This document shows, piece after piece, positions 20,455 to 33,380 of a stretch of 35,952 bases of DNA. The stretch comes from an uncultured Nitrosomonadales bacterium. GTDB lineage: Bacteria > Pseudomonadota > Gammaproteobacteria > Burkholderiales > Gallionellaceae. Numbering within the stretch: position 1 is the stretch's first letter; each line of letters begins with the position of its first letter. The stretch is from the NCBI GenBank assembly GCA_903878125.1, contig CAIRGS010000276.1:1-35952 (forward strand), given 5' to 3'. The notes beneath the pieces are model-generated. The model worked only from the letters and a program-made list of their open reading frames with translations, was not told where the DNA came from and ran no database searches. The translations under genes and the position numbers were made by a program.

Positions 20455-20973
20455 ATGCATCTAAATAACACTGAACTCCCCCACTTAATTAAGTTCTTGG
20501 TGGTTTCCACAATTTCTTTTTTTGTCGGTGCAATGCATGGCATGTTGCAGGTGATTCCGTCCATACGAGCCTGGCTGGATTCTATCGGCAGCCCTTATGG
20601 TGGCCCTGGGCACATGATAGATCCATTGGCACATGCACACATAAACTTAATCGGCGGGCTAGTAATATTGGCAATGGGAACCATGTATTATTTGCTGCCC
20701 ATAATTAGCGGAAAAGCAATTTACTCTTTACGCTTGATAAACCATTCGTTTTGGTGGACAACTATTGGGGTGTTTTATTTTTATATTACGCAAGTGGTAT
20801 TTGGCACCCTGGAAGGGAGTTTATTACTAGCAAATAACCTGCAAGCTATGGCACAAGTGCACCGCTATTATGGGCCCATCGTAGCCAGCGCAGGAATGAC
20901 CATGGCGACGGGGTTTTGCATCTATCTTGCTAACGTCTTATTCACACTTAAAAATAAAGACCGGAATCCTTAA
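20455..20973 (+). CDS. Stand-alone cbb3-type oxidase subunit I-like (C-terminal half) membrane protein
   Basis: DPLAHAHINLIGGLVILAMGTMYYLLPIISGKAIYSLRLINHSFWWTTIG aligns by eye with the CcoN heme-ligand helix and following helix (locus CcoN: VAHAHLALLGFSTFLEAAAVYLGLQTLMKRKLYSLTLGNLHFWLLLIG). Confidence 0.75.
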   Translation: MHLNNTELPHLIKFLVVSTISFFVGAMHGMLQVIPSIRAWLDSIGSPYGGPGHMIDPLAHAHINLIGGLVILAMGTMYYLLPIISGKAIYSLRLINHSFWWTTIGVFYFYITQVVFGTLEGSLLLANNLQAMAQVHRYYGPIVASAGMTMATGFCIYLANVLFTLKNKDRNP

Positions 20974-21415: not shown

Positions 21416-21824
21416 TGGATTGATCTTTATTATTTTTATCTGAATCCAGCGTGCCGCCAATTGACGATCCATATAGATTAACCATGAAACGAACAAAAGC
21501 GCTTCCGGCGGCAACATAAAATAAAGCTATGATAAACCCCCAGTCCACCCAAGGGCGCTCATCACCCGGACGAAGACCCCAAAAAGGGAAACTCAAACCC
21601 ACCGCAACCAATAACACCGCAACGGTCACTCCTATAAACCAATAGGGTATGTTTTTTTGTGACTCCGGAATGGTTTCTACCAGCTCCCAATCTTCAAGTC
21701 CTCGTTTAGCCATACGTTCTTCATCAGAAGCATAGCCAAAATGATCATCCGGCTTCTCACCCCAGCGCGGCTCATCTACTTTCGATAAGCCTTGAGCTTT
21801 CTCATCAATATCGCTGGCTATCAT
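21393..21824 (-). CDS. Two-TM protein related to the 221-aa oxidase-cluster protein
   Basis: IPYWFIGVTVAVLLVAVGLSFPFWGLRPGDERPWVDWGFIIALFYVAAGSAFV; shares the [IF]PxWGxRP...WxDxGFxIxLFY pattern with the ORF at 29665-30330. Confidence 0.6.
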   Translation of the reverse strand: MIASDIDEKAQGLSKVDEPRWGEKPDDHFGYASDEERMAKRGLEDWELVETIPESQKNIPYWFIGVTVAVLLVAVGLSFPFWGLRPGDERPWVDWGFIIALFYVAAGSAFVRFMVNLYGSSIGGTLDSDKNNKDQSNELKAEK

Positions 21825-23161
21825 AGTTTTCTCCTTTGTTCGGAAAAATGTTGAAGAGGGAATCGCCCCTTCCAGGTATCACCCGCAGTGACTTCCACCA
21901 CCACAGAATATAAGCCTCGTGGCAAATTCTGCGCGATGGAAAGCATAAGCGATTCTCGCCCGACCGGTGATAATTTAACGTCCTTAGCGCTAAGCTGGTA
22001 ACTACCCGACGGCAAACCTAACACACGCACATGAAGCTCCGCCGAGTGATACAGTTTATTGGAAAGCGCAATGCGATATTCTTGAACCGTGTGACCCTGC
22101 TGGATATCCGCATTACCCACTGCTACATGATAAGGTTGATATGACCATATTCCCCAAACAAACATCGCCGCACCCAATGCTACGAATGGGGTCGTCCAAC
22201 CCATTCTGGCAAACAATGAAATTGCGACGCCACGAAATTTATTTGCACTTTTATTCGTGCGCTCAAGCATATTAAAACGTAATAGCCCAGGGACTCCTTG
22301 TTTGTTATGCAAGCGATTGCAAGCATCAACGCAATCACCGCAATTGATACAACTGTCATAAATATCGGTTTTGCGCGGATCCAGATCGATAAAACAAGAA
22401 GTGACACAATAATTACACTTGGCGCATTCATCGCTGCGACTGGCATCGTATGCTATATGCAAGGTCTGCTTGGTTTTAAACGAATGCATCCAAACCCTGT
22501 AAATGCAGGCATAGCGGCACCAGAAATGTCTTATTACCGCAATGTCTATGAAAACGATCACGACACATACAGCGTAAATCCAATGCAGCGATCCCGCCAA
22601 CTTGGTATTTTCCTGCAATATTACAAAAGACCACACTACAATTGGCGGATAGAAATAAAATAATGGGATTAGCGCAAAAAACATAGACGCCCCCAAAAAT
22701 GCAACCCCAAGCAGCGTCCAATTCATGATCTTATTTTTGGCACCCGCGACTCGCGGCGCTTCGCCGGTTAAACTTACTTCGGCATGCTTACCTAATAGTT
22801 TGTGCGTAAGATTGTTAGCCCACTCGGCCATAGTATTCTGAGGACAAGCCCAACCGCAGAACACAGTACCTGCAGTCGAGTACAGCAACACCAAACTACT
22901 CGCCAAAAAAAGCCATGCCCCGGTTACCAAGGAAAAATCAGCCAGCCAGATCTGCCTATCAAGCACAACAAAGGCGGCCGCACCCGGATCAATACGGAAT
23001 AGGCCACTGGCCGGAATGAGTACCACAAGAATCAAGACCAGCATCTGCACCAACCGGCGCTTCCAACGGAATTCGGAATAGACTGACTTGGAACCTACGG
23101 CCGTGCCGATAACCTTGACCGGGATACTGGAAATGGATTTATATTTGACGCCGCTGGCCAT
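21821..23161 (-). CDS. ccoG: CcoG/RdxA/FixG-like polyferredoxin, cbb3 oxidase assembly
   Basis: TVFCGWACPQNTMAEW; CAKCNYCVTSC...CINCGDCVDAC; C-terminal FixG Ig-like domain. Confidence 0.85.
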   Translation of the reverse strand: MASGVKYKSISSIPVKVIGTAVGSKSVYSEFRWKRRLVQMLVLILVVLIPASGLFRIDPGAAAFVVLDRQIWLADFSLVTGAWLFLASSLVLLYSTAGTVFCGWACPQNTMAEWANNLTHKLLGKHAEVSLTGEAPRVAGAKNKIMNWTLLGVAFLGASMFFALIPLFYFYPPIVVWSFVILQENTKLAGSLHWIYAVCVVIVFIDIAVIRHFWCRYACIYRVWMHSFKTKQTLHIAYDASRSDECAKCNYCVTSCFIDLDPRKTDIYDSCINCGDCVDACNRLHNKQGVPGLLRFNMLERTNKSANKFRGVAISLFARMGWTTPFVALGAAMFVWGIWSYQPYHVAVGNADIQQGHTVQEYRIALSNKLYHSAELHVRVLGLPSGSYQLSAKDVKLSPVGRESLMLSIAQNLPRGLYSVVVEVTAGDTWKGRFPLQHFSEQRRKL

Positions 23162-23167
23162 AATTAG

Positions 23168-25783
23168 TTAATTCCCTGTCGCATTTGCTTCACGATCAAG
23201 CGGGCTCAGCTCCAGCAAACGCACACGGCTCAACTCCGCGTGCGCATCACCAGCTTTACGCTCAATTCGCCACAATGCACGCACCGCTTCTACGTGATAT
23301 GGATTAAGACGCAAAATTTTCTGCAACGCCTCTTTCTCGCTCAAACCATGCTCACGCGCCTGCGCTAAAGATGAAAACATATTATCAGCCAACGCATAAG
23401 CAATCCAGCGATCTTTTGCATTCGCCTTATACGCCAAGTGCGTCAGCTGGTTAGCCTGTTGCGTTGCGCCACGTGCAGCCGCAAGCCAGCTACGCGTCAT
23501 CAGCTCACTTGCTACGTAGGCACGTTCAAAAGCATCTTTATCGTTGTCGCGAATGCCAAGCAAATTTGCAGCGGCTTCCATTTTCGGCCTGGTTTTCAGC
23601 AAAAGCTGCAATAACTTTGTCACATCTAATTCACCTGCGTAGCGCGCGCGTGGCAGACGAAACTCAATCACTGGTGACCACTCGTCTTGCACCTGTTCCC
23701 GACTAGTCGGCATTGGCCCCCAATAGCGTCCCAGCCATGTCCACCCTCCCTCGCCAGCCGTCGCCTCATCCTGTTGCCCCAAGGGCATGCGCTGCAAATT
23801 ATGCAGCAACCCCTGCGCGCCCATAAACTTCTGCCGTGGGCCAACCAAGGCTAAATGCATTCCATCAAGAAATATTTGCGCATCTGGAAAAGCCAGCCGA
23901 AAGCTGTTAAAAATCACGTTTAACGATTTATTGTCGAATTGATTGAGCGCCAACCACTGAACAAATAGTCCATTTTCGCTTAGGCGATTACGCACGCGCT
24001 GAAATTGCTGCACTGATAATAAAGAACTTGAACCTGCCAAATCCGGATGAAACACGTCGCCGATTATAACGTCGTATTGATCCCGACTCGCGCTTAGAAA
24101 ATGCCGTACGTCGTCACGTTCCACTTTGGTTTGACGCAGAACGTCGCGATTTAATGGGGCAAATAAGCTCGCTGCAGAATTAATCGCGCCCTGCGACAAT
24201 TCAACAGCACTACGCTCTAAATCAGGAAACGCCAGAGAACCAGCCACGGAAATTCCGGTACCCAATCCGAGAAATAGTACCGCGCGCGGCTGTTCATGCA
24301 AGAGCAATGGAAGACGCGCTTGATTGGACTGCACGAACACCGCTGTAGGATCAGTTGAAGCATCCATTCTCTGCAAATCGGTCAGCAACACACGCTGCCC
24401 GTCTTGTTGCTCCACCACATGAGTCATCGAAATGGCGTCTTCGTAAAAATATAAATCCTTGCTTCCCGCTTGCGCCTGCGGCAATAGCATATTGACTGGC
24501 GGTAACTTTACAACTGGCCACGCTGCCATTAAAAAAAGCGGTACAGCAAGCCATGCGGTACGCGACTGTGCCCAAGTTAAACCCAGGATCAACAATGCCG
24601 AAGCAGCCACCACCACCGTAGCAGCGCTGCCCCAAACCGGAATCAGTACCACCCCTGCAACTACCGCGCCGAGAGCGGCGCCCAGTGAATTAGCTCCATA
24701 TAACCATACCCCACCGCCATTCGAACGGCTGTTTAACAACGGCAACCAAGCTCCAAGAGCCAGTGTAACCGGCAGAGTTACCAGCGCAAGCAATAACCCT
24801 TGCATTCTCAATGCTCCAAATAAAGAAGCAAACTCAGCTCGCTCCACCCATGCAGAAAGTGCAGGCAGCAACCATAGACTTAATACGGTAAATCCTCCAG
24901 CAATAATGGGCAGGGTTACAAACCATGCTTGCCTGTGCTGGCGTGGCGCGATCAAGCTGCCTATACCGATTCCCAACAGAAATGACGCCAGAATCACTGT
25001 CAGCACATACTCGGTGCGTAGCATCACCATGCCGAATAATCGTGTCCACGCTATTTGCAAGGTCAGACTTGCCGCACCAATCCCGGCATAGGCAAACAGA
25101 AAAGCTAAACGCGGTCGGCTTGCACTGATGCTTTTCTCGGTAACCTGCGCTGTGGTGTACCGCGATGAAAGCAGCAACAGCGCAACCACTCCCAAACAGC
25201 CAATCGCGGCAACCACTCTGACCGCCGAGACCCAACCCATGGCAGGCAGCAACCAAAGTGGTAACAATGCGCCACAAGCAGCACCTAGCGTATTTAAACC
25301 GTAAATCTTCCCCAGCTGCTCCGGCTTATTCCCCAGGGATGCTAAAATCAACGGAAACCCTGCCCCCATGATGAAAGCCGGGAACAACAGCAAACACAAT
25401 GCAACACTAGCAATAAGACCATACCATTGAAATAGCGAGAGTTGAGCCGCAGCGCCTTCCATTCCCGCCGACGTCATTTGCAGAATCAAAGGCAGGAGTA
25501 GGGCGTAAACAGCAATACCACCTTCCAATGCAGCCAGTAACAACAACGGCCTTTTGATTTGGGGAGCCCGGCGTACTGCAAATAAACTTCCCGCTCCCAG
25601 CCCCCCCATAAATGCGGCGACGGTCAGCACCACCGCAAAAATACTTACACCGAATTGCAAAGAAAGTATGCGCGCCCACAATACCTCATATGCCACGCTA
25701 GTCAGACCGAATAATCCATACAGTACTGCCAGCGGCCAGTAACTACGCTTTGAAATTAATGATAGTGACTCTTTCACCAGCAT
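23168..25783 (-). CDS. Polytopic membrane protein fused to spermidine synthase-like domain with helical C-terminal region (871 aa)
   Basis: N-terminal MFS-like helices (YGLNTLGAACGALLPLWLLP), then LGLGTGISVAGSLAFPDLERSAVELSQGAI...YDVIIGDVFHPDLAGSSSLLSVQQFQ typical of the SpeE-like fold. Confidence 0.8.
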   Translation of the reverse strand: MLVKESLSLISKRSYWPLAVLYGLFGLTSVAYEVLWARILSLQFGVSIFAVVLTVAAFMGGLGAGSLFAVRRAPQIKRPLLLLAALEGGIAVYALLLPLILQMTSAGMEGAAAQLSLFQWYGLIASVALCLLLFPAFIMGAGFPLILASLGNKPEQLGKIYGLNTLGAACGALLPLWLLPAMGWVSAVRVVAAIGCLGVVALLLLSSRYTTAQVTEKSISASRPRLAFLFAYAGIGAASLTLQIAWTRLFGMVMLRTEYVLTVILASFLLGIGIGSLIAPRQHRQAWFVTLPIIAGGFTVLSLWLLPALSAWVERAEFASLFGALRMQGLLLALVTLPVTLALGAWLPLLNSRSNGGGVWLYGANSLGAALGAVVAGVVLIPVWGSAATVVVAASALLILGLTWAQSRTAWLAVPLFLMAAWPVVKLPPVNMLLPQAQAGSKDLYFYEDAISMTHVVEQQDGQRVLLTDLQRMDASTDPTAVFVQSNQARLPLLLHEQPRAVLFLGLGTGISVAGSLAFPDLERSAVELSQGAINSAASLFAPLNRDVLRQTKVERDDVRHFLSASRDQYDVIIGDVFHPDLAGSSSLLSVQQFQRVRNRLSENGLFVQWLALNQFDNKSLNVIFNSFRLAFPDAQIFLDGMHLALVGPRQKFMGAQGLLHNLQRMPLGQQDEATAGEGGWTWLGRYWGPMPTSREQVQDEWSPVIEFRLPRARYAGELDVTKLLQLLLKTRPKMEAAANLLGIRDNDKDAFERAYVASELMTRSWLAAARGATQQANQLTHLAYKANAKDRWIAYALADNMFSSLAQAREHGLSEKEALQKILRLNPYHVEAVRALWRIERKAGDAHAELSRVRLLELSPLDREANATGN

Positions 25784-26127: not shown

Positions 26128-26514
26128 TTAAAAGGGATAAAACCAAATAACGCCCACAATAGCGTGAACAAAAGCCAGCGTGATAGTTAGCCCGGCAGAA
26201 ATCATATGCAGCATAAATACTTGCTTACCATATATCCCCATTGCGATGCCCAGCGCCCCAGTAATTAGAAGCAGGATTAATAATGGCACGCCCAATAAAA
26301 ACATAGTCAAATGCTTTTTTTGTATAGTTGAGGGCTTATCTATATTAATCTTGCTAGCTTGCTGTTCAAACGCCTCCATCACCTTAGCGCTATCGCCCTT
26401 CTGTTCGTTATCATCAGCTAGCGCTGGAATCGCGCAAAATAAAAACAACAACGCCGTAACCAGCCAGCACGCTATTAAACTTGGATTGGAGCCACCCCTT
26501 ACACTCGCCATCAT
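26128..26514 (-). CDS. Small membrane protein with signal-peptide-like N-terminus and His-containing TM helices
   Basis: SLIACWLVTALLFLFCAIPALADD...KKHLTMFLLGVPLLILLLITGALG...FMLHMISAGLTITLAFVHAIVGVIW. Confidence 0.6.
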   Translation of the reverse strand: MMASVRGGSNPSLIACWLVTALLFLFCAIPALADDNEQKGDSAKVMEAFEQQASKINIDKPSTIQKKHLTMFLLGVPLLILLLITGALGIAMGIYGKQVFMLHMISAGLTITLAFVHAIVGVIWFYPF

Positions 26515-26765
26515 TTCTCACTCTCGACTGAAATTGTCTGCTGCTCTTTCGGATCGGTTTTGCTTTCCGCGTAGTGCCATGTCAACACCGCCAACAGGAT
26601 AAAGGGAACAAAAATTACACCCAACAGGAATAAAAAAATATACCAGAGCGTATCAATATGCACGTGAAGGAAACGGTAGCTATCAACTGCATAGCTCATC
26701 TTTATCGCAGACAATGAGAGACCAAGAACCATTCCCAGCTGCCACAAAATTTTGAGCACTCTCAC
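26511..26765 (-). CDS. Small membrane protein (84 aa)
   Basis: Signal/TM-like N-terminus and second TM (RFLHVHIDTLWYIFLFLLGVIFVPFILLAVLTWHY); overlaps the FGE-like gene start-to-stop. Confidence 0.6.
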   Translation of the reverse strand: MRVLKILWQLGMVLGLSLSAIKMSYAVDSYRFLHVHIDTLWYIFLFLLGVIFVPFILLAVLTWHYAESKTDPKEQQTISVESEK

Positions 26766-27826
26766 CGTCTTTTGTCCTTCACCCCGGGATTACTGGCACA
26801 GCGGAACCCGAAAAAATCGGATGCATAGTTTGCAAAAGCGAAATTTCGATGAAATACTGAAGAGGAGAATGGATCCCCCTTCCATGAGCCACCACGCAAT
26901 ACCTTGTATTTCCCCCCAGTCGGCACAAGCTCAACCTCTTTTGTATTTGTCGCCTGCACAATTTTTCCTTTAAACAAATCTGCCGGCGCGTCGGATCCAG
27001 GATAAGGTGCAAAATCATCTGCTGTCCACTCATTTACGTTACCCGCCATATCCATTACTCCATAGGGGCTAACGCCGTTTGGATAAGCATTCACATTAGT
27101 TGTAGACCCTACATTGTAATAAGTGTTCAACCGCTCCGGTTCCATCTTATTACCCCACGGCCAGCGCCTTCCATCAGTTCCACGCCCGGACTTTTCCCAT
27201 TCCGCTTCATAAGGAAGTCGTTTGCCTGACCACTTAGCATAAGCTGTTGCATCGTACCAAGAGACCATAGTAACGGGGCGCAACGCTTCGCCTGAAGGAA
27301 TTTTTCCTTTTTTCCAGTTCAGCGGCGGACGACGTGAAGTAGCGACTACAAATTTAGCATATTGCGCATTAGTTACAGGATATTTGTCTATCCAGTAGGC
27401 GGGTAATTTAACTGTATGCTTCGGACGATTTTGTGCATCTGCACGTTCTAAATCTGTACCCATCGAAAAAGTGCCCTCAGGGATCAATACCATACTCTCT
27501 ACTTCGAGCCACTCATCTTTGGAGAGCAAGCTTTCAATTTCTGTAGCGTTATATCCTACCGCATGTTTTTTCTCTGCCTCATGCACACTATGCAATACTA
27601 AATCCTCACCAGCAGCACGTATATGGGATGATTCATCTTTCAATTCGTAGGTTACGCGTGTGCGCATTTCGCCCATACGATCGAACCCTTGATTCACAAC
27701 ATACAAGGTAATCCCAATTGCCAACAAGACAAAGCAAATTACAAAGGTAGCCGATAAGTAACGTTTGCGTCGTGCATAATCTGCAACAGGAAGCACAGTT
27801 TTTCTGTTCGCAGAAGTAACTGTCAT
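26762..27826 (-). CDS. Membrane-anchored SUMF1/formylglycine-generating-enzyme-fold protein
   Basis: MVLIPEGTFSMGTDLERADAQNRPKHTVKLPAYWIDKYPVTNAQYAKFV...GKRLPYEAEWEKSGRG...YGVMDMAGNVNEWTAD...KVLRGGSW...FFGFRCA; N-terminal TM. Confidence 0.9.
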   Translation of the reverse strand: MTVTSANRKTVLPVADYARRKRYLSATFVICFVLLAIGITLYVVNQGFDRMGEMRTRVTYELKDESSHIRAAGEDLVLHSVHEAEKKHAVGYNATEIESLLSKDEWLEVESMVLIPEGTFSMGTDLERADAQNRPKHTVKLPAYWIDKYPVTNAQYAKFVVATSRRPPLNWKKGKIPSGEALRPVTMVSWYDATAYAKWSGKRLPYEAEWEKSGRGTDGRRWPWGNKMEPERLNTYYNVGSTTNVNAYPNGVSPYGVMDMAGNVNEWTADDFAPYPGSDAPADLFKGKIVQATNTKEVELVPTGGKYKVLRGGSWKGDPFSSSVFHRNFAFANYASDFFGFRCASNPGVKDKRR

Positions 27827-28297
27827 CTAAATATCACCTTCTCTATTACTGGCACGTTGCTTATATAAAATATCTTGGGGACTTCTCCCGTATGTTTTTT
27901 TCACCATGATTTCACCCATGACCCCGCCGAAGGCTGCCGAAGTCATTACTACAGTCACATACAAAGCCCACATGCCAAATGGCATTATCGACGTATCTTC
28001 CGGAACTGTATTTATATAGGTGCTTTCCAAGTAGCCAATCGATTTAACTATAAGTGGCGGGAAATAACACAGCCATTTTCCGCCAAGTCCAAAAATAACA
28101 GCAACCAATACACCGACGAAAAAAGGTAGCACCAACATATCGATGACCCACAGGCCATTGAAGTCAAGAATGCCGCGAAATAACTCGATTTTTACTCCAA
28201 GTAAACGGTCGCCAAAGTAATTCAGCGCACAACCCATGATAACTGCCACCAGCCCGTTGAAAAATCGGGCTCTGGTCAAAGGAGTCAATTTACTCAT
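27827..28297 (-). CDS. Integral membrane protein of oxidase cluster (156 aa, 3-4 TM)
   Basis: Hydrophobic segments; abuts the cytochrome c gene (ATGA-type overlap with 28294) and the FGE-like gene; family not recognised. Confidence 0.6.
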   Translation of the reverse strand: MSKLTPLTRARFFNGLVAVIMGCALNYFGDRLLGVKIELFRGILDFNGLWVIDMLVLPFFVGVLVAVIFGLGGKWLCYFPPLIVKSIGYLESTYINTVPEDTSIMPFGMWALYVTVVMTSAAFGGVMGEIMVKKTYGRSPQDILYKQRASNREGDI

Positions 28298-28782
28298 GGT
28301 CGATACTCTTGACCAGTAAGTACTTCACGTTCAGCTTTACGCGTTTCTTCAAGATACCAGTCTTGTACCTTCAGGCTTGCCATATAGCGCGCCAGAAGTC
28401 GCCTTTCACTTTCAGGCAGATGCGCATACGATCGCATTTGATATTCTTTCTTTAAGCGGGATGGCAATATTGCTTGAGGATTTGTTGCTGAAAAATACTG
28501 GTAAAACCACTCTTCACTTCGCAAGGATCCCATGCCGTCCAATATCGGAGCGGGAACGGCTTTCATAAGGTCCCGCACCGTCCATAATGAATGGCAGCTT
28601 TTACAATTTTGTTGGCGATAGACATCCATAGCAGCGCGTTCCAAAGTAGCAGGTGCGGTGCTGTAATAAGGAATACCTTTATCGACTTCCTGAATAGTAT
28701 TGAGGCGCCATAGATTACGCCCCATAAAACCAACAACTACAATTGTAATTACCAAAAAAACGATTTTTTCGCCTTGTTTCAT
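28294..28782 (-). CDS. Membrane-anchored monoheme cytochrome c
   Basis: N-terminal TM; VYRQQNCKSCHSLW (CxxCH); distal YQMRSYAHLPESERRLLARYMASLK (Met ligand and class-I C-terminal helix). Confidence 0.85.
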   Translation of the reverse strand: MKQGEKIVFLVITIVVVGFMGRNLWRLNTIQEVDKGIPYYSTAPATLERAAMDVYRQQNCKSCHSLWTVRDLMKAVPAPILDGMGSLRSEEWFYQYFSATNPQAILPSRLKKEYQMRSYAHLPESERRLLARYMASLKVQDWYLEETRKAEREVLTGQEYRP

Positions 28783-29057
28783 TTGTCCTGTTGCTTTTCT
28801 TTTTCCTGACGCTTTAAAACACGCTCCCGGCTTTGCATCTGTGCGGCATTAACCTCGCGACTTTTTGCATATTCTTGAGGTGACATTTTTTCTCTATCGC
28901 CTTCATCAAATACAAGATACTTGATATCTTCATCGAATTGCTCATTTTTAAGTCCCCATCTAATCCAATAAATAACAGCAAGAATTATCATTCCTCCAAC
29001 AACAAGCCAAAGGTAAATAGACCATCCATCATCTAACGATTGTAAGTAGCTTTCCAT
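28779..29057 (-). CDS. CcoS-like small membrane protein
   Basis: TM followed by WGLKNEQFDEDIKYLVFDEGD, resembling the CcoS pattern W..k.gQFdDl...rILfDDd. Confidence 0.55.
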   Translation of the reverse strand: MESYLQSLDDGWSIYLWLVVGGMIILAVIYWIRWGLKNEQFDEDIKYLVFDEGDREKMSPQEYAKSREVNAAQMQSRERVLKRQEKEKQQDK

Positions 29058-29100: not shown

Positions 29101-29421
29101 CTAGTAAAGATTTCCGCCCAGCATTTGCAATCCGCCAAAAATGACTGCAACTATAATTCCTGTGATTATCATCCCAAACATCACTTTCTCGCCAGTTCTC
29201 ATTTTTTTTGGCGCATGATTTCCGAACATCACCATAATCACGATGCCAGAAAACACCAATACGCCCAGCAGCATGAAAAAAAACACACCCGTACTAAATT
29301 GCTGACTGCGCATTCCTTCTATGCTTAGATCTAATTTTGGTGAATATGCTGTATTAGCTAACACATTAAAAAACCTGCCGACATTTAATCCTTCAAGAAA
29401 GGAATAAATAATAATCTCCAT
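29101..29421 (-). CDS. Small integral membrane protein (106 aa)
   Basis: Two strong TM segments (VFFFMLLGVLVFSGIVIMVMFG; VMFGMIITGIIVAVIFGGLQML); first gene after the internal terminator. Confidence 0.55.
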   Translation of the reverse strand: MEIIIYSFLEGLNVGRFFNVLANTAYSPKLDLSIEGMRSQQFSTGVFFFMLLGVLVFSGIVIMVMFGNHAPKKMRTGEKVMFGMIITGIIVAVIFGGLQMLGGNLY

Positions 29422-29664: not shown

Positions 29665-30330
29665 TTAAGCGTTATGCCGTCTTTCACCGTGGCGTGGATC
29701 AGCGTCATGATGACGTGGCTGCCAATGGTATGCAGGCAATCGCTTCACAGTAATAGTTACGCCAACAAAGAACATCACAAGATAAAATAAGTCAATCGTA
29801 AATCCTTTATCCCACCAAGGCTGTTGACGTTCTCGTTTACCATTAGCGCGATAATTACCTTCAAAATTAGCAATTTTCACCACTGGACCTACAACAGTGT
29901 AATCCTTAAGATCCACAGATGGAAGCTTCATAACCTCCTCTATTTGCGGCTTCAGCACTCGCAAATCGTCCATACTCACTGGATGTCGACCTTGCTGGGC
30001 TTTAAATTGACTGTCTTTATTAATTTCAACTATACGTTTCATTGCTGCATCATCACCCTGAGCTTCTTGAATCGACTGGATTTCAGGCGTATCCATAGCT
30101 TTAATATAGTCGACGTAGATCGCAGCTGTAGGACGCTGCCCCCAGAGCGGGATTGTGGTCAGGAATGCTGTTGCAATCGTTAACGCGACAAGAATAACAA
30201 CAGGAACTGGTAAACGGTTGTTATCCTCTGTCATCCCGCCAAGATCTTCGGCCTCCCAAAGTGCTTTGCTTCTTTCTCCAGTCTCTGCGTGCGTCAAAGA
30301 AACCAGCGGTTCATTAAATACCCAAGTCAT
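29665..30330 (-). CDS. Heme-less two-TM oxidase-cluster protein with CcoP-N-terminus-like segment
   Basis: LWEAEDLGGMTEDNNRLPVPVVILVALTIATAFLTTIPLWGQRP resembles the CcoP N-terminal motif (W..DLtE.NNPLP..W); no CxxCH; C-terminal PWWDKGFTIDLFYLVMFFVGVTI. Confidence 0.55.
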   Translation of the reverse strand: MTWVFNEPLVSLTHAETGERSKALWEAEDLGGMTEDNNRLPVPVVILVALTIATAFLTTIPLWGQRPTAAIYVDYIKAMDTPEIQSIQEAQGDDAAMKRIVEINKDSQFKAQQGRHPVSMDDLRVLKPQIEEVMKLPSVDLKDYTVVGPVVKIANFEGNYRANGKRERQQPWWDKGFTIDLFYLVMFFVGVTITVKRLPAYHWQPRHHDADPRHGERRHNA

Positions 30331-30345: not shown

Positions 30346-31308
30346 TTATTTCAGATTTATTACAAAATCAATCAAGTTCCGAATTTCGCTATCCTTAGCG
30401 TACATAGGCACGTCTGGAGGAGTAGTGATTTTACCTTCCCGATACTCATCGTACTCAGAACGCCATTTTTTGAAATCAATTTTTTTGCCTTCAGCGTCGA
30501 CCTCGCCCCATAAATAATCAAAACGGGGCATGATGGAATGCGGTTGCACTAAGCGTGGATTAAAGAAATGCAACATCATCCACTCTCTAGACGCATTGCG
30601 TGAACCAACGTGCAGCAGATCCGGTCCCTTACGATCTGACCCAAATGCTGTCGGTGATTCGCCATTAAAATCACCAAGCATAGGAGGAGCGCCAAATACT
30701 TGCCAATCTTGTGTCTGTTCTGGCAATAATGTATGACACCACCAACAACCCTCTCGTACAAACATGGTTTTTCCAGATCCAGCGTGCAATATGTCTGAAT
30801 CTGCTGCTTGTTTTAAAACGTCACTTGGAGTCCAGCCTTTTGTGGCTGTCGCATTTTCCATATAAGCAAGTGGCTTATCCTCAAAATTCAGCAGCTTATC
30901 ACTCTTCTTAATCAGGAAAACAACACCATCTTCTTTTCTTGCTTCTTTTATGCGGCCTTCCTTGACACTAAGCTCCTCAACGCCGTGACCCAAGTTGGCA
31001 GTGTGATTCACGCCATTCGGCAATGTCGTTCCTGCAGGATATACATATGCATACACAGGGTCCATCGGCGCGCCACTTTTCGGATCTTTCCTGAGCAACA
31101 CTTTCAATGGCTTGTTCAATCCGTTCAGTAACGGATCTGAGAGCTGCCACCCGGAGTCCCACCCTGACGTCAGCTGCTTATCCAAGCCAACCTCTGAAAC
31201 GACTGACGCCGCAAGATCAAAACTTGGAAACAGCAGGGTTATACTCATTGATAATGCGAAGGCCGCACCAAACATTCTTGAACCGATTCTATACTCTCTA
31301 AAATTCAT
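30346..31308 (-). CDS. CcoO-like membrane-anchored monoheme cytochrome c with long insert
   Basis: MFVREGCWWCHTLLPE...GSDRKGPDLLHVGSRNASREWMMLHFFNPRLVQPHSIMPRFDYL, matching CcoO YVREGCxxCH...RTGPDLARVG...NPRSVVPESIMPxYPWL. Confidence 0.85.
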   Translation of the reverse strand: MNFREYRIGSRMFGAAFALSMSITLLFPSFDLAASVVSEVGLDKQLTSGWDSGWQLSDPLLNGLNKPLKVLLRKDPKSGAPMDPVYAYVYPAGTTLPNGVNHTANLGHGVEELSVKEGRIKEARKEDGVVFLIKKSDKLLNFEDKPLAYMENATATKGWTPSDVLKQAADSDILHAGSGKTMFVREGCWWCHTLLPEQTQDWQVFGAPPMLGDFNGESPTAFGSDRKGPDLLHVGSRNASREWMMLHFFNPRLVQPHSIMPRFDYLWGEVDAEGKKIDFKKWRSEYDEYREGKITTPPDVPMYAKDSEIRNLIDFVINLK

Positions 31309-31344: not shown

Positions 31345-32754
31345 TTAACGCTCATACGCCAATTCGTGTGGCATACGTCCGGCTGGAATTACAGTACCTT
31401 CACGCGCAGTCATCCACATGTTATATAACCAAATAAGGGTTGAAGAAAACACCATAGTCCCGCCCAACCAACGTGCGATCATATAAGGATGCTCAGCGAT
31501 CACGACATCAATGTATGGAACTTCATATATTTTACCAGCACCCTGAATTAGGCCGGCAATCGTCATTGATATCCAGTAAGTACTAAACCCAATCAACAGC
31601 AACCAGAAATGCAGGTTTCCTAAAGTCAGCGAGTACAGCTTGCGCTTCATCAGTGTTTGCAAACCCAAGTACACGGCAGCCGCCTCAAGAAACGTCGAGA
31701 ACCCTAGCAACGCAAGATGCGCATGCGCCACCATCCAACCTGTACCATGAATGTACCAGTTGATTGAGCGTGTTTGCTGGAAGCCACCCTGCATATTGAG
31801 CGGGATCGCCAGCAATACACCAACTACGGTAAAGCGTACTTCAAGGTTTTCGACAAACATGTTCCACTTACCCTGCATGGTCAAAAGTATGTTCGACACG
31901 AAGGCAATAGCCGGGACCAGAATCAATACCCCTTCCACTGAAGCGAATGACTTTAGCCACTCAGGCAAAGGAGCCGACATCAAATGGTGCGCAGCCGGAG
32001 TAGAATAAAAAACGACGATTGACCAAAAATGCAAGTGGCCTATTCGATGGGAATACAACGGATTACCTGTCACCTTTGGAATAACGTAATAGGCGATAGC
32101 TGCAGCTACTGGAGTAATCCACAGCCCAAGAACGTTATGCGCAAACCACCAAGTCATGTAAGCTTCTGTCAGACCAGTAAGGTGGAAGTACTCTGGTAGA
32201 TTTCCCACCAAAAATACGATGATCAACATAAAAGTTGCGGCTGCAAAAAACCAGTTGGTAGTATAAATACCTTGAGTACGGCGCTTTATTATGGTCATCC
32301 ATACATTAACTGCCAATGGAATGCTTATAAATGCAGCTACAGCAAGATCCAGCGGCCACGGGAAATCAGAATATTCACGCCCGGAAGTCACCCCCATCCA
32401 CAATAGAGACAGGCCCAAAAGCAGGGAAATATTCCACATCATGCAATTCCACAAACCAAGCTTCTCTGACCACAGCCTGGTGTTCCCCAGTATCGGAGTG
32501 ATATACATCATGGCCATTGCAAACGCCATCGAAATCCAGCCAAAAATTACCGCCAGCACATGCACCTGACGCATGTGGCCGAAAGCAAACATTTCCGTCC
32601 CGGTTACAAAATCAGGGAAAGCAAGCTTAGCCGCGTTGAATGACCCCAACCCAGTTCCGATCACGAACCACATTATGGCCGAAAAACCAAAGAAAATCGC
32701 CGCCGAACCGACCGGGATAGCCTCATTTTTACCGAATAAATACTTAAGAATCAT
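31345..32754 (-). CDS. CcoN-like (C-family) heme-copper oxidase subunit I
   Basis: FGHMRQVHVLAVIFGW; WWFAHNVLGLWITP; LHFWSIVVFYSTPAAHHLMSAPLPEW; INWYIHGTGWMVAHAHLALLGF. ATG at 32754 (RBS aaggagatgcagc) preferred over the ORF-track start. Confidence 0.9.
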   Translation of the reverse strand: MILKYLFGKNEAIPVGSAAIFFGFSAIMWFVIGTGLGSFNAAKLAFPDFVTGTEMFAFGHMRQVHVLAVIFGWISMAFAMAMMYITPILGNTRLWSEKLGLWNCMMWNISLLLGLSLLWMGVTSGREYSDFPWPLDLAVAAFISIPLAVNVWMTIIKRRTQGIYTTNWFFAAATFMLIIVFLVGNLPEYFHLTGLTEAYMTWWFAHNVLGLWITPVAAAIAYYVIPKVTGNPLYSHRIGHLHFWSIVVFYSTPAAHHLMSAPLPEWLKSFASVEGVLILVPAIAFVSNILLTMQGKWNMFVENLEVRFTVVGVLLAIPLNMQGGFQQTRSINWYIHGTGWMVAHAHLALLGFSTFLEAAAVYLGLQTLMKRKLYSLTLGNLHFWLLLIGFSTYWISMTIAGLIQGAGKIYEVPYIDVVIAEHPYMIARWLGGTMVFSSTLIWLYNMWMTAREGTVIPAGRMPHELAYER

Positions 32755-32832: not shown

Positions 32833-33036
32833 TTATTTTTTTGGCGTTTTATGATGCGCGACTGAAGACATCTCTTCTTTAATTATGTCGCCTAGCGTAC
32901 CGCCGATTGTCCCGCCCAATGTATCAGTACCATCCGGCAAATGAACTTTTTCGTGCGGCATTAAAACATACCATGATAACCACATACTAGAAAATGCCAA
33001 GAGCATACAGAACGTACCCGCAAATATTACAAGCAT
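32833..33036 (-). CDS. Small membrane protein of oxidase cluster (67 aa)
   Basis: One TM plus GTDTLGGTIGGTLGDIIKEE; very strong RBS (aaaggaggggaaacATG). Confidence 0.6.
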   Translation of the reverse strand: MLVIFAGTFCMLLAFSSMWLSWYVLMPHEKVHLPDGTDTLGGTIGGTLGDIIKEEMSSVAHHKTPKK

Positions 33037-33098: not shown

Positions 33099-33380
33099 TT
33101 AAGCATGACGCCCATTTTCAATCGTATCATGTCGCTTTAGCGCGAGTGCCAGCATTATTGTAAACACAAAGCCAAACGCAAGCATCCAGAAGCTCATAAA
33201 ACCATTAAATGTTGTTGGAATATATGAACCAGAACCTACTCCGCCCCAATCTTCAAATCCTGCACGTCCCATCCAACACATAAGAGCAGCTCCAAAAACG
33301 CTACCATTACCCATACCTGTTACAAATCCCGCAACGATAATAATCCAAAATGACCTAGATGGTATTGATTGTCTTTGCAT
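33099..33380 (-). CDS. Small membrane protein, first gene of oxidase cluster (93 aa)
   Basis: Two hydrophobic segments (SFWIIIVAGFVTGMGNGSVFGAALMCWM; FNGFMSFWMLAFGFVFTIMLALAL); G-rich RBS. Confidence 0.6.
   Translation of the reverse strand: MQRQSIPSRSFWIIIVAGFVTGMGNGSVFGAALMCWMGRAGFEDWGGVGSGSYIPTTFNGFMSFWMLAFGFVFTIMLALALKRHDTIENGRHA

What the first reader, a model, noticed from the sequence alone, without database searches (positions are those of the whole stretch)
31345..32754. CcoN-like subunit keeps the O2-reductase active site but loses apparent K-pathway residues
Ungapped eye alignment to P. stutzeri CcoN (sequence and numbering recalled, not retrieved). Low-spin His (H60) and CuB ligands H207, H257/H258 are kept, as is the cross-link Tyr251 (HFWSIVVFY..PAAHH) and the HxH pair H345/H347. 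Ser240 aligns with Gly, Tyr317 with Ala, and Glu323 (FEGP) with Gln (MQGG). The FeB-type glutamates expected of cNOR/qNOR are absent. This suggests an O2 reductase with a rebuilt proton-input route, altered heme b3 proximal environment, or reduced proton pumping. The INWYIHGTGWMVAHAHLALLGF helix also looks partly NOR-like (INYYTHGTQ..AAHGHMAFYGAY).
Basis: partly seen in the sequence, partly recalled or inferred. Interest (0 to 1): 0.72.

Follow-up and report, generated by a model that had tools for sequence, protein, structure and literature searches.

The report
Iron/nitrite-oxidiser cbb3 oxidase without K-channel
A nitrite-oxidising bacterium (Candidatus Nitrotoga), and many iron oxidisers related by this gene, use an oxygen-consuming enzyme that keeps the usual catalytic centre but in every sequence examined has lost two residues thought to carry protons into it, so it must feed protons in by some other, undescribed route.

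Summary
ORF 31345-32754(-) encodes a C-family (cbb3-like) oxygen-reductase subunit I from a Ca. Nitrotoga genome. It aligns over about 430 residues with P. stutzeri CcoN. All six metal-ligand His and the helix-VII cross-link Tyr are kept. Ser240 is Gly and Tyr317 is Ala in 111/111 distinct orthologues, but Ser and Tyr in 42/42 other C-family sequences. Two new invariant His appear (positions 237, 241). Ser283, the Thr351-equivalent of another published K-channel definition, is Ala. Glu323->Gln is not specific: all six fused-type CcoN rows sampled have it too. NOR glutamate motifs are absent.

The gene heads a conserved ~13-gene cluster (CcoN, CcoO, a monohaem c, CcoG- and CcoS-like proteins, several unknowns, no CcoP) shared by Nitrotoga, Gallionella, Sideroxydans, Ferrovum and related genomes. 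It appears to be the 'distal cbb3' of the iron-oxidiser literature. In at least eight near-complete Nitrotoga genomes, including N. fabula, it is the only terminal oxidase found (no other full HCO, no bd, no AOX). It therefore almost certainly reduces O2, and bioenergetics require cytoplasmic proton uptake. I favour a rebuilt proton path; pumping is undetermined. The clade is known; the fixed K-channel loss was not found described in the papers I could search.

The parts
31345..32754 (-). CcoN-like subunit I, 469 aa; C-family haem-copper oxidase with Gly239 (Ps S240), Ala316 (Ps Y317), Gln322 (Ps E323), new His236 (Ps Y237) and His240 (Ps I241)
30346..31308 (-). CcoO-like subunit, 320 aa, one CxxCH (REGCWWCH), matches 3MK7 chain B over residues 178-275; extra N-terminal domain
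29665..30330 (-). p221, conserved membrane protein of unknown family; no detectable CcoP/CcoQ/CcoH similarity
29101..29421 (-). p106, small membrane protein, conserved in the cluster, unknown
28779..29057 (-). p92, single-TM CcoS/FixS-like protein (invariant QFDEDIKY..F motif; FixS E=0.006, below Pfam's cut-off)
28294..28782 (-). c162, membrane-anchored monohaem cytochrome c (CKSCH); candidate electron-entry subunit in place of CcoP
27827..28297 (-). p156, membrane protein, conserved in the cluster, unknown
26762..27826 (-). SUMF/FGE-domain protein (PF03781, E=2.9e-55), conserved in the cluster
26128..26514 (-). p128, conserved small membrane protein of the cluster
23168..25783 (-). 871-aa protein with a spermidine-synthase-like domain, conserved in the cluster
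21821..23161 (-). CcoG/FixG-like 4Fe-4S protein (oxidase copper maturation), ~24% identical to CcoG of the canonical cco clusters
32833..33036 (-). p67, small TM protein between p93 and ccoN, detected in 13 of 110 loci, mostly Nitrotoga
33099..33380 (-). p93, two-TM protein heading the cluster, detected in all 80 genome-contig loci

Best explanation
This is subunit I of a distinct C-family (cbb3-like, 'distal cbb3') cytochrome c:O2 oxidoreductase that serves as main or only terminal oxidase in Ca. Nitrotoga and is shared with many iron oxidisers. Electrons pass from periplasmic c-cytochromes through the CcoO haem c (and probably the separate c162 haem c) to low-spin haem b and then to the haem b3/CuB/Tyr site, where O2 becomes water. 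Shown: ligand set, Tyr-II, CcoO, fixed loss of Ser240 and Tyr317 and of Ser283, absence of CcoP, conserved cluster, sole-oxidase status in several genomes. Inferred: protons still come from the cytoplasm, because otherwise nitrite oxidation by a periplasmic NXR would generate no proton motive force. They reach the site by a remodelled K-like path that keeps Thr215, Tyr223, His243 and Tyr251 and uses the two new helix-VII histidines (Ps 237, 241) plus water in the cavities opened by Ser->Gly and Tyr->Ala. Whether it also pumps protons is unknown.
For: Alignment to solved cbb3 structures. 111/111 G240, A317, H237, H241 against 42/42 S and Y, with T215, Y223, Y251 and all ligands invariant. The clade is monophyletic on a long stem apart from canonical and fused CcoN (99/97 support). 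Strong purifying selection. Cluster conserved across Gallionellaceae, Ferrovum and further Pseudomonadota. Nitrotoga genomes G000, G018, G008, G047, G043, G051, G039 and G064 hold no other full-length HCO, no bd and no AOX. Locus L091 is named Ca. Nitrotoga fabula and carries the same CcoN as G018. N. fabula consumes O2 during nitrite oxidation, has a periplasmic NXR and delivers electrons to a single predicted cbb3 (PMC6050957).
Against: No biochemical data. The AlphaFold model was too poor to use (mean pLDDT 50), so no proton path was traced in 3D and the role of His237/His241 is a guess from helix position. In S. lithotrophicus ES-1 the distal ccoN was up on thiosulfate rather than Fe(II) (PMC8788666), so the link to a particular donor is loose. 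Two genus members (G061, G070) lack the gene and G073 has a canonical CcoN instead. Genomes are drafts, so absence of other oxidases is not absolute.
Confidence: 0.72

Rival explanations
1. An ordinary, fully pumping cbb3-type oxidase in which the substitutions are functionally neutral because water molecules or other subunits complete the same K-channel.
For: Most of the polar positions checked (T215, Y223, H243, Y251, T293) are kept; hosts grow on it as sole oxidase; N. fabula's enzyme was annotated as proton-pumping (PMC6050957).
Against: A Ser and a Tyr invariant in every other sampled C-family enzyme are both fixed as Gly and Ala, with accompanying His changes; CcoP, which supplies the channel-entrance Glu in studied enzymes (from memory), is absent. 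A paper states that K-pathway mutations in B/C families block both phases (PMC12901375).
Confidence: 0.15
2. The enzyme reduces O2 with protons taken from the periplasm, as in cNOR, and is not electrogenic.
For: Loss of the cytoplasmic K-channel Ser/Tyr; a short NOR-like stretch around HGT..AHAH.
Against: With a periplasmic NXR and electron entry at cytochrome c, such an oxidase would leave nitrite oxidation without any coupling site (inference from PMC6050957); several Nitrotoga genomes have no other oxidase.
Confidence: 0.06
3. It is a C-family-derived nitric oxide reductase.
For: Other HCO lineages have given rise to NORs, some proposed from their proton channels (PMC11388526); partial NOR-like helix.
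Against: Tyr-II kept; NOR motifs H-X-Arom-X-E and HHX-Arom-Arom-X17-E (PMC3084760) absent by inspection; 4XYD cNOR a far weaker match than cbb3; it is the only oxidase found in O2-respiring Nitrotoga genomes.
Confidence: 0.04

Closest known systems
Canonical ('proximal') cbb3 oxidase CcoNOQP, e.g. P. stutzeri 3MK7
   Same: Fold, six His ligands, Tyr-II in helix VII, Ca-ligand E122, R57, monohaem CcoO, CcoG-like maturation factor
   Different: ~30% identity; S240G, Y317A, S283A, E323Q, Y237H, I241H; no CcoP or CcoQ detected; extra conserved genes; longer CcoO; scores 229 bits against the TIGR00780 cut-off of 583
'Distal cbb3' of iron oxidisers (term from Ducluzeau 2008 as used in PMC8788666, PMC7029218, PMC10734462; Ferrovum cbb3 in PMC4725956)
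   Same: Ferrovum myxofaciens, Gallionella and Sideroxydans loci carry this very cluster; Ferrovum JA12 likewise has only subunits I and II plus co-localised c cytochromes
   Different: Nothing; this is most likely the same enzyme. The fixed K-channel substitutions were not found mentioned in those papers. Identity with the 'distal' label was not tested on named reference sequences.
Fused CcoN-CcoO proteins (L040, L041, L081, L196-L198)
   Same: C-family, Tyr-II, Gln at position 323
   Different: Keep Ser240 and Tyr317; separate clade
cNOR NorB
   Same: HG(T/S)..AHxH stretch, overall HCO fold
   Different: Lacks NOR glutamates, keeps Tyr-II; remote by sequence

Membership tests
C-family (cbb3) O2 reductase | Subunit I sequence similarity to CcoN | tested here: met
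   3MK7 E=2.6e-62; within the C-family side of the tree
C-family (cbb3) O2 reductase | Six His ligands of haem b, haem b3 and CuB | tested here: met
   invariant 111/111
C-family (cbb3) O2 reductase | Cross-link Tyr in helix VII (Tyr-II) | tested here: met
   Y251 111/111; the cross-link itself not testable
   S240->G, Y317->A, S283->A in 111/111; only Y223 and Y251 kept; Thr351=S283 mapping from PMC12901375
C-family (cbb3) O2 reductase | Monohaem CcoO subunit | tested here: met
   FixO 65.6 bits over cut-off 29.6; 3MK7_B match
C-family (cbb3) O2 reductase | Dihaem CcoP subunit with FixP_N domain | tested here: not met
   PF14715 absent from 18/19 genus genomes; no CcoP-like profile in the cluster
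C-family (cbb3) O2 reductase | Meets NCBI's ccoN equivalog cut-off | tested here: not met
   228.8 against 583.15 bits
C-family (cbb3) O2 reductase | O2 reduction and proton pumping | not testable with these tools
   indirect only: only terminal oxidase found in several genomes
cNOR/qNOR | H-X-Arom-X-E and HHX-Arom-Arom-X17-E motifs (PMC3084760) | tested here: not met
   window has HNVLG and HHLMS (alignment)
Distal cbb3 subtree | Placement with reference sequences of Ducluzeau 2008 | not tested
   paper not held; inferred from the shared cluster in Ferrovum, Sideroxydans and Gallionella

The most novel reading that the evidence does not exclude
A further working design of haem-copper O2 reductase: cytoplasmic protons reach a normal haem b3/CuB/Tyr site without the K-channel Ser and Tyr, by a histidine/water route unique to this clade, with altered or no pumping, as an adaptation to high-potential donors (nitrite, Fe(II)).
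Probability: 0.35. Interest if true: 0.8.

Novelty: new variant of a known kind. Interest (0 to 1): 0.6.

Why it matters
cbb3 oxidases are described as having a single proton-input channel whose residues are essential in the enzymes studied. Here is a large natural clade, in places the only terminal oxidase found in a free-living chemolithotroph, in which two of those residues are fixed as Gly and Ala. It gives a ready comparison for what is really needed to feed and couple a haem-copper oxidase. It also casts doubt on the assumption that nitrite- and iron-oxidiser cbb3 enzymes pump protons like P. stutzeri's, which enters their growth-yield and energy-budget models.

Tried and rejected
AlphaFold2 on the window protein with 19 orthologues gave mean pLDDT 50, so no fold search or 3D channel tracing was attempted. 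Profile comparison of the unknown cluster proteins with CcoP/CcoQ/CcoH built from Gallionellaceae found nothing; an eye resemblance of p221 to the CcoP N-terminus was dropped for that reason, though the reference profiles were thin: one of the three rows meant for CcoP (L079) was another dihaem protein, and CcoH had a single row. Plasmid collection: no intermediate relatives, best hits around 34% identity. Two alignments failed on strand errors. Ducluzeau 2008 not held. Chance or sequencing error rejected by fixation across 111 sequences. E323->Q rejected as a distinguishing feature.

Full report
Identity and coordinates. The ORF 31345-32754 on the minus strand (469 aa from the ATG at 32754, preceded by AAGGAG) is a haem-copper oxidase subunit I (Pfam COX1, E=2e-77). 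Its best solved relatives are cbb3 CcoN subunits (P. stutzeri 3MK7, E=2.6e-62), with cNOR far behind (4XYD, E=1.8e-5). The host is Candidatus Nitrotoga: the nearest named loci are Nitrotoga assemblies at 93-100% identity, including Ca. Nitrotoga fabula. The first half of the window is a dcw cell-wall/division cluster.

The residues. Against P. stutzeri numbering the alignment has no gaps in the relevant helices. H60, H207, H257, H258, H345, H347, the cross-link Tyr251, R57, E122 and W203 are all kept. S240 is Gly, Y317 is Ala and E323 is Gln. I collected 136 orthologous loci (111 distinct proteins) and 42 other C-family sequences from Pseudomonadota and the PDB; a few rows in each set are repeat fetches of the same gene. 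G240 and A317 are fixed in 111/111, S240 and Y317 in 42/42. The clade also fixes H at 237 (Y in 41/42 others), H at 241 (aliphatic in the others), A at 283, N at 321 and L at 320. Thr215, Tyr223, His243 and Thr293 are kept. E323->Q occurs in 6/6 fused CcoN rows, so it is not special. D340, proposed in 2026 as a pump-loading site (PMC12901375), is Gly in 110/111, but it also varies elsewhere (32/42 D).

What 'K-channel' means here. One published C-type definition names Tyr-II plus a Ser and a Tyr at the Thr351 and Ser291 positions of P. denitrificans (PMC3084760). Thr351 corresponds to P. stutzeri S283 (PMC12901375). By either definition the Ser is lost in this clade, and Y317 is lost; Y223 and Y251 remain. 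One paper states that K-pathway mutations in B- and C-family enzymes block both phases of the cycle (PMC12901375).

Phylogeny and selection. In an ML tree the clade is one side of a branch (99/97 support) with a stem of about 1.9 changes per site and short internal branches, apart from canonical CcoN and from fused CcoN-CcoO proteins. The position relative to NorB is unreliable because of long branches. Within Nitrotoga dN/dS is about 0.013-0.022 (the most distant pair is near saturation at silent sites), so the gene is under strong purifying selection. CcoN is much more conserved between distant hosts (75-88%) than its neighbours (mostly 35-70%).

Neighbourhood. ccoN lies in a same-strand run p93-(p67)-ccoN-ccoO-p221-p106-p92-c162-p156-SUMF-p128-SpeE-like-ccoG-like. 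This order is kept in most loci of Nitrotoga, Gallionella, Sideroxydans, Ferrovum and further beta/gammaproteobacterial MAGs, and in genome groups f79/f99, which I take to be Zetaproteobacteria from context, not from names. CcoP is absent: no FixP_N domain in 18 of 19 genus genomes, no CcoP-like profile in the cluster. A membrane-anchored monohaem c (c162) is present, as noted for Ferrovum JA12 (PMC4725956). This is almost certainly the 'distal cbb3' of the iron-oxidiser papers (PMC8788666, PMC7029218, PMC10734462).

Why O2 reductase. In eight genus genomes at least 98% complete (G000, G018, G008, G047, G043, G051, G039, G064) the only full-length HCO is this gene, and there is no cytochrome bd and no AOX. 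Others add bd (G026, G058, G067) or AOX (G033, G055). G061 and G070 lack it and G073 has a canonical CcoN. N. fabula respires O2 with nitrite and was assigned a predicted cbb3 (PMC6050957). The NOR signature motifs are absent by inspection.

Mechanism. In Nitrotoga, nitrite electrons enter at cytochrome c and NXR releases protons in the periplasm. If the oxidase also took its protons from the periplasm, nitrite oxidation would move no charge and build no proton motive force. Cytoplasmic uptake is therefore required (inference). Since the usual Ser and Tyr are gone and two His are gained on helix VII near them, I propose a remodelled route: T215/Y223, the new His237/His241 and water in the vacated spaces, to His243/Tyr251. 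Positions 237 and 241 flank 240 on the helix, but no reliable 3D model was obtained. Pumping stoichiometry cannot be judged from sequence.

Verdict. The clade is known; its fixed loss of these residues did not turn up in the papers I could search, a library that lacks most subscription journals. New variant of a known kind.

Noticed in passing
window 20455-20973 (+); second copy on G000:C95:16331-16795: 172-aa proteins matching only the C-terminal third of COX1 (helices around H345/H347), keeping an (A/G)HxHIN(L) motif; syntenic with the oxidase cluster in many loci. Possibly small haem b proteins or haem-handling factors; function unknown.
   Followed up: partly
window 26762-27826 (-): A formylglycine-generating-enzyme (SUMF)-type protein is a constant member of this oxidase cluster, with no evident sulfatase nearby.
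   Followed up: partly
window 23168-25783 (-): 871-aa protein with a spermidine-synthase-like domain, next to the CcoG-like gene in the cluster.
   Followed up: no
G061:C9:30711-31889, G070:C8:19399-20607, G073:C240:2461-3672 (L193-L195): 460-496-aa HCO-like proteins with a GPGH(L/V)LQFVH motif in genus members lacking this CcoN; matched by COX1 only weakly, class unknown.
   Followed up: no
G073:C316: A genome placed in the same genus carries a canonical CcoN and FixP instead of this enzyme; 83% complete, possibly a divergent or mixed bin.
   Followed up: no
window 31345-32754 compared with neighbours: CcoN is far more conserved between distant hosts than CcoO and the other cluster genes (75-88% against mostly 35-70% identity).
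   Followed up: partly
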